Below, one piece after another: positions 37,366 through 54,285 of a stretch of 54,638 nt of DNA (position 1 is the first letter of the stretch; the number at the start of each line of letters is the position of its first letter). The position numbers were made by a program, and so were the translations under genes. The stretch comes from an uncultured Methylococcaceae bacterium (lineage in GTDB: Bacteria > Pseudomonadota > Gammaproteobacteria > Methylococcales > Methylococcaceae). The stretch covers positions 1 to 54,638 of the forward strand of contig CAIZPP010000045.1 in the NCBI GenBank assembly GCA_903934875.1, written 5' to 3'. The notes under the pieces were generated by a model. It made no database searches. It was not told the origin of the DNA and saw nothing but the letters and a program-made list of their open reading frames with translations.

Positions 37366-37444
37366 GCTGCGGTAGTAAAGCAACATTGAACTCACTCTCC
37401 CTCCGGGAGAGGGTTGGGGTGAGGGCAAATCGAATGTGGCTTTT
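37366..37444 (+). repeat. R2 repeat, left part of copy 2
   Basis: 79 bp matching 11451-11529 closely, including the GCTGCGGTAGTAAAGC end and the CTCTCCCTCCGGGAGAGGG hairpin. A right-end-like piece with a similar palindrome (CCCTAGGGGAGAGGG ... GTAGCTTTACTTCCACAGCA) is at about 38617-38680, on the far side of the two pseudogenes. Confidence 0.7.
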
Positions 37445-37860
37445 CCCAGACATTGCCTAGCCTGTCATGCAAGCTCCAGGGGTTGCACCGCTTCTTACCG
37501 ATTTCGCGGGTGCCCGATTTCGGATTGGGGCATGGCATTTCCGGCCATGCCGATGAATTATAACCTTCCTCTAATTCGTAGCCTACACCGCTGTTGCCGC
37601 CGTACTAGGCGATGGCATCCAAAGCTGGGGCGTTTCTTTCGCCCAGAATCTCTATTCCGCCAGTGTACAGCGCGGTGTCGGTCCGGGCGCGGCAGGCATG
37701 TTCCCATTGGGCCTCGGTGGGCAGCACCAAAGCCACGCCCGGTATCTTGGCGTTGATGCGTTGCAGAAAGGCGCCAAGCCGCGTGTCTCCTCTTCCAATG
37801 AGCCCATCAGGAACCGCCCCGGCGGTATCCAGCGCAGGCGTTGGGTGATTTTTGCTTGCC
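37445..37860 (-). pseudogene. FGE/sulfatase-modifying-factor-like gene remnant
   Basis: Pieces of a formylglycine-generating-enzyme (FGE)-type domain appear in two frames: a start LRWIPPGRFLMGSLEEETR (about 37790-37850), then GVALVLPTEAQWEHACRART, LYTGGIEILGERNAPALD, a TAG in place of a Trp codon, then YGGNSGVGYELEEGYNSS and HDRLGNVWEK, which is cut by the R2 repeat at 37444. The 5' side joins an IS4 transposase remnant. The C-terminal catalytic/ligand segment is missing. A fossil of a second FGE gene in addition to the one at 51400. Confidence 0.75.
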
Positions 37861-50368: not shown

Positions 50369-50474
50369 GTTCCCAAGCTCCGCTTGGGAACCCCGGTCTT
50401 GCAAGCTCCTGCTTGGCCGTTCTTCGGGAAGCTGGAGCTTCAACAACCCCATTCCCAAGTAGGAGCTTGGGAAC
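50369..50474. repeat. REP-like palindromes (GTTCCCAAGCTCC type)
   Basis: Two GTTCCCAAGC/GCTTGGGAAC palindromes at the ends and a smaller AAGCTGGAGCTT palindrome inside. It resembles the GTTCCCACGC family but with AA in place of AC. It supplies the last codons and stop of the retropepsin-like gene. Confidence 0.7.
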
Positions 50475-50874
50475 GAGCAAATGTGGTTGTCACGCATTTG
50501 GCCTTGCTGACGGCAAAATTTGGATTGGCGGGATTGACCGTTACCGTGCGGCGAGACGGATTGACGACCAAATCCATATCCTCCATCGGAATGGCACCCA
50601 GTAAAACTTCATTGCCCAGCACCATCGCACCAGTCAGGCAGTGCCGTTTGTCAAAATTGACAAGTATCGGGCCGACATAAGGCCGCTTGCGTGAGGTGCC
50701 ATCTGCCGTTTCCACTTCCCGCTCTTCGTAAGTATCCAAATCGAGTTGCAAAGCAATATGTTCTGGGATGCACAAATGCACCGCGCCTGTATCCACCAAG
50801 GCCGAAACTAGCAGCGGCTTGATGCCGGGTTTGCGGGCATTGCTGAGGGTAATGTCTGTGTAGATGAGTCCCAT
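50440..50874 (-). CDS. retropepsin-like (clan AA) aspartic protease
   Basis: 144 residues from ATG 50874; the longer open frame upstream belongs to the mqsA debris. The active-site triad is SALVDTGAVHLCIPEHIA (DTGA), followed by the strand EVETADGTSRKRPYVGPILVNF and the flap/closing region AMVLGNEVLLGAIPMEDMDLVVNPSRRTV. Bacterial members are single-domain dimeric proteases of unknown function, often near toxin-antitoxin genes. The last ten or so residues (ARSQAPTWEWGC) come from a REP repeat, so the natural end is lost. Confidence 0.85.
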   Translation of the reverse strand: MGLIYTDITLSNARKPGIKPLLVSALVDTGAVHLCIPEHIALQLDLDTYEEREVETADGTSRKRPYVGPILVNFDKRHCLTGAMVLGNEVLLGAIPMEDMDLVVNPSRRTVTVNPANPNFAVSKAKCVTTTFARSQAPTWEWGC

Positions 50875-51317: not shown

Positions 51318-51345
51318 AAAAAAAAAGTCGATGGGGCTGCGCCCC
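51318..51345 (-). terminator. rho-independent terminator of the STAND gene
   Basis: On the minus strand the stem GGGGC/GCCCC (51333-51345) is followed at a short distance by nine T (51318-51326). It lies about 55 bp after the gene's stop. DGR variable genes often have a hairpin soon after the stop, so this structure also deserves attention in that light. Confidence 0.6.
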
Positions 51346-51399: not shown

Positions 51400-54285
51400 T
51401 TAGTCCTGGGCAAGACGGAAACCCTGGTCGTAGTTCCGGTGGACGGGGTCGCTCCCGAAGCGGTTGGCGGAACGGGCGTCCCAGACGTCGTTGATCCACG
51501 AGCCGCCCCGGACCACCAGCAGGCCATTAGCACATTTCATGCCACCTTCATAAGCGCTGCCGTCATTCGGCGCACCCTGATAGTCCTCATGGTAGCAATC
51601 CTGCACCCATTCCCAAACATTGCCCAAGGTGTTATGCAAGCCCCAGGCATTGGGTTTGAATTGGTCCACCGGGGCCGTGAACGGGTAATCATCCGAGCAT
51701 TTAAACGATTCCCATGTGATGCCGGCATACGTGGCTTTGACTTTAGACTCGTTGTGCTGGTCGAACACATTGGCATAGGTGCAAGCCGCGTCGGGTTCGC
51801 CTGGCGGGTTTTCCGCCCAAAACCGGGGCGTGGTCGTGCCGGCACGGGTGGCATATTCCCATTCCGCCTCGGACGGCAGCCGATAGCGCTTGCCGGTGCG
51901 CTCCGACAGCCATGCGGTGTAGGCCACCGCATCATCCCAACTGATATTGATAACCGGTCGATTGCCGCGCCCCCAGCCTTGATCATTCGGTCGTTCCCGT
52001 CCGGTGGCGGCGGCAAACAAATCATACTCGTCAAAGCTCACTTCATAGCGGCCCATCGCGTAGGCTTGGGTAAATCGGACCGTGTGCACGGGCTGCTCAT
52101 TTTTCTCCCCATTCAGATCGCCCATTTGGAAAGCACCCGCCGGAATAGTGACCATGTCCGGTTCAGTCAAAGGCCAGAGGTGGTATTGAACCAATAGGGC
52201 TTTGCTGGCCAAGGCGGGCGGATAAAAGGAGCGGCTGACATGTAAAAAAAGCCCCAAGCCTAGAAGCAAGCACACGCCAGCAACGGCCCAGCCGATGTGC
52301 ATCCACCGGTTCTTGTTGTTGCAAGCGGCCAAATACGCCTGCGCGCATGCCGAGCGCGGTTCGGCGGCTTGCCAATAGCCTTTCAGCAGGTTGCCGGTGC
52401 GCAAGCCGGCACCCGGCCGGCCGGCCTTGCTCCATTCGCTGGCGACCAGTTCCAAATCCCGGCGTAAACGCAGCGCCTTGGCATCCTCTAAAATCCACAA
52501 CCGCAAGCGGTCCCAGCCGCTCAATACCGTCTCATGCGAGACTTCCAGCGTGGCTAGGTCATCTTCCCCTGTTCCAGAGATCAACAGCCGCGCATTAATC
52601 AAGGCATCGGCCAGCTTGCCTGCATCACCGACCAGGTCTTTTTGTAAGGCACGGCGGCGCGTGGCGACCTCCTGTTCATTGACCTCGACCAAATGCGCGA
52701 ACAGCTTGGGCAAGGCTGCGGCTAGGTCCAGGCTTTTTTCCAAACCGGCCAAGGCTTCGTCGGCGCGTTGTTGGATGGCCCCGGTCACGCCGCCTAGGTG
52801 TTCATAAGCGGCTATGCTCAACACATTTGACTGTTCCCGCTCGTATAATTGGTTCAGCGTGTAGGCGATCAACGCCATCGCGCCCGGCCCCCGGCCGGCT
52901 TCATCCAGCAGCTTGGCGGCCAAACCGTCTTGCAGTTCCACCCCGGCCACCTCGGCAGGCCGGGTGATCATTAGATGAATGGCCTCGGCCCCCGGCAAAT
53001 CCAATGGGAAGGTGCCGCGATCTTGGCGCAGCAAATTCGCCAGGACGGGTTCGGCAATCGCGGTGGCATAAAAATCGGCACGCAAGGTCGCCACAGCCCG
53101 CACTCGTGGCAGCGACACCAGATGCTCCAACAACTGGATGAAATCCCGTGTTTCGGCAGGCTTACATTGGGTGAACAATTCTTCAAACTGGTCGATGACT
53201 AGCAACAACTCTTGGGCCTGCGGATGGTTGGCCAGCAGCGTGTTCAGGTGGCGTTGCGCAAGCATCCCGTCCGTTTGCAGTACGCGGGCCAATTCGGCTT
53301 CGTGGCCGGAAATTTTCAATTGGTTCTTCAGCACAAAAGCCAAGGCCAGAAAGGGATTGTCCCCCCGTTCGCCGGGTTTGAAGACTAGGTCTAGCCACGG
53401 CGCATAGCCGATGATGCCAGAGCGCAAGCGCGGCAACAGCCCGGCCATGACCAGCGATGACTTGCCGGAACCGGACACGCCGACGACGGCGACAAAACGA
53501 ACGGAAGAGTCGGCAAATTGTTTCAGCAATTGGTCGGCCTCGCGGCCACGGCCAAAATAAATCGGGGCTTGTTCCGGGGTGTACGCATCCAAGCCGGGGT
53601 AGGGCGAATCGGTCCACAGCGGTTTTAGGTTGGATGCCTGGGTAAGGGCTGAAAGGTCGGGCGGGGGCAAGGTCTCCAGCAACTTGTCCAAGCGGTCGCG
53701 CAGAAAGCGCTCAAATTGTTGACTGAAGTCATCCGGCGTTTCGTAGCGATTCAGCCCCCCATTCAGCGAGCTGTCCGGGTTGGTGAAGCCAGCCAAGAAC
53801 GTCTTCAGCTTGTCCCACTGTTCCAGAATATTGACAATATCCGGGTCATTAATGGCGTGTTGGGGGATTTCCGTGCGTTGGAACACCCAAATATTGCCGG
53901 GTTTTTGTTTGGCCCTAAACCCTTGGACCGCATTCAGGTACTCCCATTCGGTGCCGGATTGGTAGGGCGTGCCGTCGGCCTTGAATGCAAAATCAGCAGG
54001 AAGCGGCCCACCGATGCGCGACCACAGAATGACTAACACCAGATCGCAATCCTCGGGTTTGGGCAGCCCAAGTGCGATGGCTTGTTGCGGTGTCACCCCG
54101 GCTTCCATCGCCACCGCCGCTCCGGGCCGGTCCCAAGCAACGATTTCACAGACGATGCGCCCGCGAAAGCGCCGTTCGCCATTGATGTGGTCTACGACTT
54201 CGCGGGCCAGCTTGCGTTCCAACGGCACATCACCCGGAGAGGCCAGGAAAATCTGGAATTGCTTCAAAGCGTTTGCATCGGTCAT
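51400..54285 (-). CDS. DUF4062-STAND NTPase-TM-FGE fusion protein
   Basis: 961 residues. Residues 8-150 are a DUF4062/TIR-like domain (FQIFLASPGDVPLERKLARE). Residues 229-640 are a STAND-type NTPase (nSTAND1-like): PYPGLDAYTPEQAPIYFGRG, Walker A GVSGSGKSSLV (269-279), Walker B LLLVIDQFEELF (360-371). A membrane span follows (about 662-684), then a formylglycine-generating-enzyme-like fold (709-961; MVTIPAGAFQMGD, RLPSEAEWEYATRAGT, TLGNVWEWVQD, VVRGGSW). The FGE catalytic cysteines are missing in the GGSW loop, so it is probably a ligand-binding version. The start lacks a Shine-Dalgarno and follows an R1 end by 5 bp. Likely an immune or conflict sensor; inference from the architecture. Confidence 0.88.
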   Translation of the reverse strand: MTDANALKQFQIFLASPGDVPLERKLAREVVDHINGERRFRGRIVCEIVAWDRPGAAVAMEAGVTPQQAIALGLPKPEDCDLVLVILWSRIGGPLPADFAFKADGTPYQSGTEWEYLNAVQGFRAKQKPGNIWVFQRTEIPQHAINDPDIVNILEQWDKLKTFLAGFTNPDSSLNGGLNRYETPDDFSQQFERFLRDRLDKLLETLPPPDLSALTQASNLKPLWTDSPYPGLDAYTPEQAPIYFGRGREADQLLKQFADSSVRFVAVVGVSGSGKSSLVMAGLLPRLRSGIIGYAPWLDLVFKPGERGDNPFLALAFVLKNQLKISGHEAELARVLQTDGMLAQRHLNTLLANHPQAQELLLVIDQFEELFTQCKPAETRDFIQLLEHLVSLPRVRAVATLRADFYATAIAEPVLANLLRQDRGTFPLDLPGAEAIHLMITRPAEVAGVELQDGLAAKLLDEAGRGPGAMALIAYTLNQLYEREQSNVLSIAAYEHLGGVTGAIQQRADEALAGLEKSLDLAAALPKLFAHLVEVNEQEVATRRRALQKDLVGDAGKLADALINARLLISGTGEDDLATLEVSHETVLSGWDRLRLWILEDAKALRLRRDLELVASEWSKAGRPGAGLRTGNLLKGYWQAAEPRSACAQAYLAACNNKNRWMHIGWAVAGVCLLLGLGLFLHVSRSFYPPALASKALLVQYHLWPLTEPDMVTIPAGAFQMGDLNGEKNEQPVHTVRFTQAYAMGRYEVSFDEYDLFAAATGRERPNDQGWGRGNRPVINISWDDAVAYTAWLSERTGKRYRLPSEAEWEYATRAGTTTPRFWAENPPGEPDAACTYANVFDQHNESKVKATYAGITWESFKCSDDYPFTAPVDQFKPNAWGLHNTLGNVWEWVQDCYHEDYQGAPNDGSAYEGGMKCANGLLVVRGGSWINDVWDARSANRFGSDPVHRNYDQGFRLAQD
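51424..51495 (-). other. candidate DGR-type variable region in the FGE C-terminus
   Basis: The last variable-looking stretch, residues 931-954, reads INDVWDARSANRFGSDPVHRN and then YDQ, before the conserved GFRLAQD. Most codons at likely contact positions are NNC (ATC, AAC, GAC, GTC, GAC, TTC, AGC, GAC, GTC, CAC, AAC, TAC, GAC), which could all come from AAC by adenine mutagenesis. The high third-position C of the genome reduces the force of this. No template repeat or reverse transcriptase was found in the window. Confidence 0.45.

What the first reader, a model, noticed from the sequence alone, without database searches (positions are those of the whole stretch)
51424..51495. Possible diversity-generating-retroelement variable region in the FGE domain
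The C-terminal stretch between GGSW and GFRLA has codons mostly of the NNC form (ATC, AAC, GAC, GTC, TTC, AGC, CAC, TAC) at positions that vary in DGR targets, while the flanking conserved residues use other codons. FGE-type folds are classic DGR variable proteins, and the two catalytic cysteines expected of a true FGE are absent. This is consistent with adenine-directed mutagenesis from an AAC-rich template. No reverse transcriptase or template is in the window, so an off-window cassette is needed.
Basis: partly seen in the sequence, partly recalled or inferred. Interest (0 to 1): 0.8.

Follow-up and report, generated by a model that had tools for sequence, protein, structure and literature searches.

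The report
Hypermutated tip of bacterial immune-type sensor
The window holds a real target of a known bacterial hypermutation machine: the last ~100 bases of a defence-type sensor gene carry its signature and the machine lies elsewhere in the same genome, but the exact template for this target was not found in the draft assembly.

Summary
The gene at 51400-54285 (-) encodes a 961-aa STAND NTPase with a C-terminal FGE domain. Its last ~100 coding bases behave like a variable region (VR) of a diversity-generating retroelement (DGR). The same draft genome holds two complete DGR loci and five templates. Twelve VRs elsewhere in it match one of these with 174 of 329 adenines but only 1 of 829 other bases changed. 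The window VR differs from its class-mate on C11 at 16 of 99 sites, none at third codon positions, 15 in columns where other templates have A. Against a paralog (C232), identity is 83-94% per block of gene bases 1-2700 but 40-65% at 51426-51500. A GC hairpin follows. No template of this class was found in the assembly or six congeners; it may lie in a gap or be lost. Current activity is untested. DGR-diversified STAND-FGE sensors are published: new member of a known kind. The VR seems swapped in from another target.

The parts
51400..54285 (-). Target gene, 961 aa: STAND NTPase with C-terminal FGE domain (putative sensor)
   Evidence: ORF; Pfam nSTAND1 3.9e-96 and FGE-sulfatase 1e-52
53929..54255 (-). 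N-terminal DUF4062-like stretch (residues 11-119), weak
   Evidence: Pfam DUF4062 E 0.015, below cut-off; PADLOC PDC-S60 over residues 8-204, E 1.9e-9
52414..53604 (-). nSTAND1 NTPase domain (residues 228-624)
   Evidence: Pfam PF20703 E 3.9e-96
51409..52164 (-). FGE-sulfatase domain without the two catalytic cysteines
   Evidence: PF03781; AlphaFold model pLDDT 82, pTM 0.85; Foldseek: PvdO rank 1, FGEs, DGR protein TvpA 2y3c rank 33 with E 4.2e-11; cysteine alignment
51408..51518 (-). DGR variable region (99-nt core 51412-51510)
   Evidence: Skeleton closest to C11 and C13 (1 and 6 mismatches in 69 columns, next 15); 16 differences to C11 at codon positions 10/6/0; identity drop against C232
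51400..51425 (-). Conserved 3' end of the VR, IMH-like; the role is inferred
   Evidence: Identity back to 21/26 (81%) against C232; shared with C11
51346..51399 (-). Pyrimidine-rich tract after the stop codon
   Evidence: Similar tracts follow many of the listed VRs
51333..51345 (-). GC hairpin GGGGC-GCA-GCCCC
   Evidence: 1 of 200 mononucleotide shuffles as good; folds as 5-bp stem with 3-nt loop but z only -1.08, 29 of 200 dinucleotide shuffles fold as well
51318..51326 (-). T run after the hairpin
   Evidence: Sequence; similar T runs behind other VRs

Best explanation
The stretch is the variable region of a DGR target encoded away from its cassette. A DGR reverse transcriptase with Avd copies a template RNA while randomising adenines, and the cDNA replaces the 3' end of this gene. 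The FGE tip of a STAND NTPase sensor is thereby varied while the rest stays fixed. Shown: RT-Avd-TR cassettes in the genome, adenine-limited rewriting at twelve other VRs, the same pattern between this VR and C11, VR-centred divergence from a paralog, and a hairpin behind the VR. Inferred: that a template of this class exists or existed, that an RT encoded elsewhere serves it in trans, that the protein is a defence sensor, and that the VR came in by recombination with another target's 3' end. The fossil rival below is a sub-case, so the odds overlap.
For: RT: three RVT_1 hits in the genome. C177 and C185 each have FGE target, Avd (NF033474, 88.3 and 84.3 bits, cut-off 80), RT, TR and second FGE target. 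TR-VR: 12 VRs matched to 4 TRs, 174/329 A changed, 1/829 non-A changed; the wrong-TR control gives 355/597 A and 372/1482 non-A changed. Window VR: C45-C11 differ at 16 of 99 sites, codon positions 10/6/0, 15 of 16 in columns where at least two of four TRs have A (p 9.6e-9, sites taken as independent); C45-C232 body differences are 73/52/178 (Fisher 1.3e-6). Skeleton closest to C11 and C13, C13 being a frameshifted copy. Divergence from C232 and G006 concentrated in the VR. Hairpin. Fold.
Against: No TR with this skeleton in the assembly or, by the 3'-half pattern, in six congeners; none by exact pattern in genome contigs or viral contigs. The class TR is unseen, so A-limitation is judged from class-mates and from TRs of other classes. 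C13 departs from C45 at six sites outside the TR-A columns. The identity drop against C232 starts before the VR: 74% at 51536-51585 and 65% at 51516-51535. Hairpin evidence is mixed: z -1.08; 3 of the 12 assigned VRs show none by the criterion used, while 4 of 5 TRs also show one, 1 of them better than shuffles; hairpin plus T run could partly be a transcription terminator. No strain or read data were available.
Confidence: 0.9

Rival explanations
1. Fossil VR: diversified by a DGR in the past, but its template is lost, so the sequence is now frozen. (A sub-case of the best explanation.)
For: No class TR found. Degraded cassettes exist here: C266 keeps TR and VR but only the last ~34 residues of its RT and residues 6-59 of Avd; the C229 RT match ends where a 141-nt contig end begins that is the exact reverse complement of the start of C166.
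Against: C45 and C11 keep the same skeleton apart from one column, where C11 has A, whereas C13, a broken gene, has drifted. The TRs of C166 and C288 begin within 400 nt of a contig start, so a gap could hide the missing TR.
Confidence: 0.35
2. Ordinary divergence of an FGE/PvdO-like enzyme gene in a genome with C-ending codon bias; no DGR.
For: 35% of body codons already end in C; PvdO is the closest solved structure.
Against: No third-position differences to C11 in the VR against 178 of 303 in the C45-C232 body comparison; local identity drop; catalytic cysteines absent.
Confidence: 0.02
3. Diversity at this gene arose by gene conversion from other FGE target genes only, with no retrohoming at this gene itself.
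For: Mosaic: the VR core agrees only with C11 at 32 sites and only with C232 at 6; the body at 9 and 57; hairpin and T run at 0 and 5.
Against: Conversion from C11 would copy its variable codons too; those differ at A-type positions while the skeleton stays. An unseen donor of the same class remains possible.
Confidence: 0.1

Closest known systems
DGR-diversified STAND NTPase/FGE targets of Thiohalocapsa PB-PSB1, DGR 6 and DGR 3 (Dore et al. 2024, PMC10907252; seen: outline, section 4 part 1 of 3, sections 12 and 18, passages)
   Same: nSTAND1 or NACHT NTPase with C-terminal FGE/CLec VR, several DGR loci per genome, degenerate loci, targets served in trans, and a locus (DGR 7) whose VRs match no TR elsewhere in the reference genome
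   Different: No adapter domain was seen in Pfam scans here; N-terminus only weakly DUF4062-like; the window target has no RT or TR in its contig
Remote variable proteins of cyanobacteria (PMC7517822; passages seen)
   Same: VR-bearing CLec genes dispersed away from the cassette
   Different: Those were tied to a TR of the same genome; here the class TR was not found
Bordetella phage BPP-1 DGR target site (PMC3240598; passages seen)
   Same: GC-rich hairpin downstream of the VR
   Different: Published phage set: 7-10 bp stems, 4-nt GRNA loops, 4-34 bp from the VR; here a 5-bp stem with 3-nt GCA loop, 66 nt between GFRL and hairpin
Treponema denticola TvpA (PDB 2y3c)
   Same: Same fold, C-terminal part alignable
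   Different: Not fused to a STAND NTPase (recalled)

Membership tests
DGR target (variable protein) | VR matching a TR except at TR adenines | tested here: inconclusive
   No cognate TR found; best of the five TRs has 15 non-A mismatches. Between class-mates C45 and C11, 15 of 16 differences lie in A columns of other TRs
DGR target (variable protein) | DGR reverse transcriptase in the genome | tested here: met
   C177 and C185 RTs beside Avd and TR; LPLGNLTSQ and YVDD motifs, the first recalled as DGR-type. No DGR-specific RT model was among the hits shown; NCBIfam's best, group II RT, is below its cut-off
DGR target (variable protein) | Accessory protein Avd | tested here: met
   NF033474 above cut-off at both loci; Pfam bAvd
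DGR target (variable protein) | CLec/FGE fold with C-terminal VR | tested here: met
DGR target (variable protein) | Hairpin or cruciform downstream of the VR | tested here: inconclusive
   Present, but shorter stem and 3-nt loop, z -1.08
DGR target (variable protein) | Ongoing A-limited diversification in a population | not testable with these tools
   No reads or strain series; one genome per species held
Formylglycine-generating enzyme | Two catalytic cysteines | tested here: not met
   Aligned positions are not cysteine
STAND NTPase conflict (antiphage) sensor | STAND NTPase core with C-terminal sensor-type domain | tested here: met
   nSTAND1 3.9e-96 and C-terminal FGE; that the FGE senses anything is inferred
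STAND NTPase conflict (antiphage) sensor | N-terminal effector domain | tested here: inconclusive
   DUF4062 E 0.015; PDC-S60 E 1.9e-9
STAND NTPase conflict (antiphage) sensor | Protection from phage | not testable with these tools
   Needs an experiment

The most novel reading that the evidence does not exclude
VRs here act as exchangeable 3' modules. A STAND sensor replaced its VR and 3' edge with that of another target class (shared with a caspase-FGE protein) while keeping its own body and hairpin, and so came under a different template. Effector, template class and hypermutated codons would then vary independently across a set of sensors with STAND, caspase, TIR, SIR2 and glycosyltransferase-like N-termini.
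Probability: 0.35. Interest if true: 0.65.

Novelty: new member of a known kind. Interest (0 to 1): 0.48.

Why it matters
It adds a well-supported case of a bacterium whose immune-type sensors are dispersed DGR targets with several template classes. Because the gene has a paralog 86% identical in protein with a different VR, it offers a natural test of how a sensor changes its template. It also shows that codon form read from raw sequence can point to a DGR target without any cassette in view.

Tried and rejected
Tried without result: exact VR-end pattern in genome contigs and viral contigs (the outputs warn that records of the window's own genome or very near ones may be left out); blastn of the VR in plasmids and phages; Rfam on five loci (0 matches). 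A paper search on DGR, gene conversion and variable repeat gave one paper, seen only in the listing; that is the only search behind my not citing prior VR swaps.

Rejected: true FGE enzyme; plain drift. The wide regex returned mostly chance matches; its template-like hits were checked. Of the 39 stretches taken as VRs, five have no TR of equal length, and two of those five (C38:2567, C13:11254) are regex artefacts. The pattern was written from the three class members, so their zero mismatches there are by construction; it tests only whether a fourth copy exists. The hairpin's folding energy is not significant.

Full report
What was claimed.

Check. The stretch is in frame in a 961-aa minus-strand gene, 51400-54285. 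19 of 24 codons end in C against 35% in the body. The protein has nSTAND1 and FGE-sulfatase domains and a weak DUF4062-like N-terminus. FGE cysteines are absent. The best model of the FGE domain (pLDDT 82, pTM 0.85; the other four models average 66-73; under 50 at residues 219-225 and 227-229, inside the VR) matches PvdO, true FGEs and, at rank 33, the DGR protein TvpA.

The genome. The window is contig C45 of a 5.41 Mb, 344-contig assembly. It has 59 FGE matches, 58 over the cut-off. Three RT hits lie on C177, C185 and C229. C177 and C185 each carry FGE target, Avd, RT, a TR overlapping (C177) or just behind (C185) the RT end, and a second FGE target. Five TRs were found: C177, C185, C266, C288, C166. 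On C229 the RT match ends at about residue 289 of 385; the last 141 nt of that contig are the exact reverse complement of the first 141 of C166, after which C166 resembles an RT C-terminus and carries its TR. An insertion in this RT is one reading; an assembly fault is another. C266 keeps TR and VR but only the end of its RT and part of Avd.

Adenine-limited rewriting. A regex found 39 VR-like stretches in 42 fetched stretches of the genome (window included; not all 59 FGE matches). I compared them with the five TRs. Twelve match one TR with at most one non-A mismatch: five to C185, three to C177, three to C166, one to C266. Over these, 174 of 329 A sites and 1 of 829 other sites differ; A went to T 81, G 77, C 16 times. 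Against wrong TRs, 355 of 597 A and 372 of 1482 non-A sites differ. The other 27, the window VR among them, have 7 or more non-A mismatches to any TR, or no TR of equal length (5 of 27).

The window VR. Its best match among the TRs has 15 non-A mismatches. Outside the A columns (69 columns) it has 1 mismatch to C11 (a caspase-FGE protein), 6 to C13, whose gene is frameshifted, and 15 or more to the other 26 stretches of equal length. Against C11 there are 16 differences in 99 nt, codon positions 10/6/0, 15 in columns where at least two of the four 99-nt TRs have A (hypergeometric p 9.6e-9, sites treated as independent); the sixteenth is T against A. Against C13 there are 24 differences, 3 at third positions and 6 outside the TR-A columns, as a decaying copy would show.

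Paralog comparison. C232 in the same genome is 86% identical in protein over the full length. Nucleotide identity is 83-94% in each 150-nt block of gene bases 1-2700, then 74% at 51536-51585, 65% at 51516-51535, 80% at 51501-51515, 40-65% over 51426-51500 (short blocks), 81% at 51400-51425 and 74-85% to 51250. G006 against C45 gives 75-92% in the body and 50-70% over 51426-51500. The drop is thus centred on the VR but starts some 70 nt before it. Related genes of congeners G001, G003 and G005 carry further different VRs at the same place.

Mosaic. Sites where C45 agrees only with C232, or only with C11: body 57 and 9; 5' edge 6 and 4; VR core 6 and 32; 3' edge 2 and 4, plus a 6-nt block shared with C11 and missing in C232; tract 4 and 3; hairpin and T run 5 and 0. 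The edges and tract do not decide. C232 and G006 share the other 3' edge. I read this as C45 having received its VR and 3' edge from another target; it is an inference from few sequences.

Downstream element. A pyrimidine tract, a GC hairpin and a T run follow many VRs here. By the criterion (stem of 5 or more, loop 3-6, within 140 nt), 26 of 39 stretches have a hairpin, 25 of them matched by at most 10 of 200 shuffles; so do 9 of the 12 assigned VRs. Against this, 4 of 5 TRs also have one, though only that of C266 beats its shuffles. The pattern AAAAAATCG-N(1-12)-GCTNCGC occurs 16 times in the genome (reversed control 0). By coordinates, 14 of these lie 64-105 nt behind FGE or VR ends, but only two of the 14 (C154, C289:14140) belong to the twelve assigned VRs; the other two of the 16 (C152:7087, C294:11651) were not examined. 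The window's own copy ends CGACTTTT and is not among the 16. In BPP-1 a hairpin behind the VR is needed for efficient homing (PMC3240598, passages).

Mechanism. Most likely an RT-Avd pair acts on this remote target using a template outside the assembled sequence. The C288 and C166 TRs begin within 400 nt of contig starts, so breaks at cassettes are real. Loss of the template cannot be excluded. Dore et al. [quoted passage not shown]

Place among known systems. STAND-FGE/CLec DGR targets are published (PMC10907252, section 12); FGE-type DGR domains in related conflict systems too (PMC7159879, passages), as are remote targets (PMC7517822, passages; PMC8144416, passages). Other VR proteins here carry SIR2-NACHT, TIR, GT4-conflict with nSTAND1, or DUF4062-NACHT N-termini; 4 of the 10 scanned showed nothing but the FGE domain. 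Hence: new member of a known kind.

Noticed in passing
window 37443-37724 (-): Decayed FGE-domain fragment with an in-frame TAG, inside the same window.
   Followed up: partly
G000:C229 end and G000:C166 start (L026, L076): The last 141 nt of C229 are the exact reverse complement of the first 141 of C166, at the point where a DGR RT breaks off: insertion or assembly fault.
   Followed up: partly
G000:C266 (L028:2927-3754): DGR locus with TR and VR kept, only the end of the RT left, and Avd matching over residues 6-59 of 117.
   Followed up: partly
G000:C98:5375-5476 against C288 TR: VR one codon longer than the C288 TR it resembles, apparently within the AAC repeat: possible slippage (by eye).
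   Followed up: no
twelve assigned VRs: Adenine changes to C (16) are much rarer than to T (81) or G (77).
   Followed up: no
window about 50400-50481: An ~80-nt repeat with copies 96% and 86% alike on C11; the query ended at 50400, so it may be longer.
   Followed up: no
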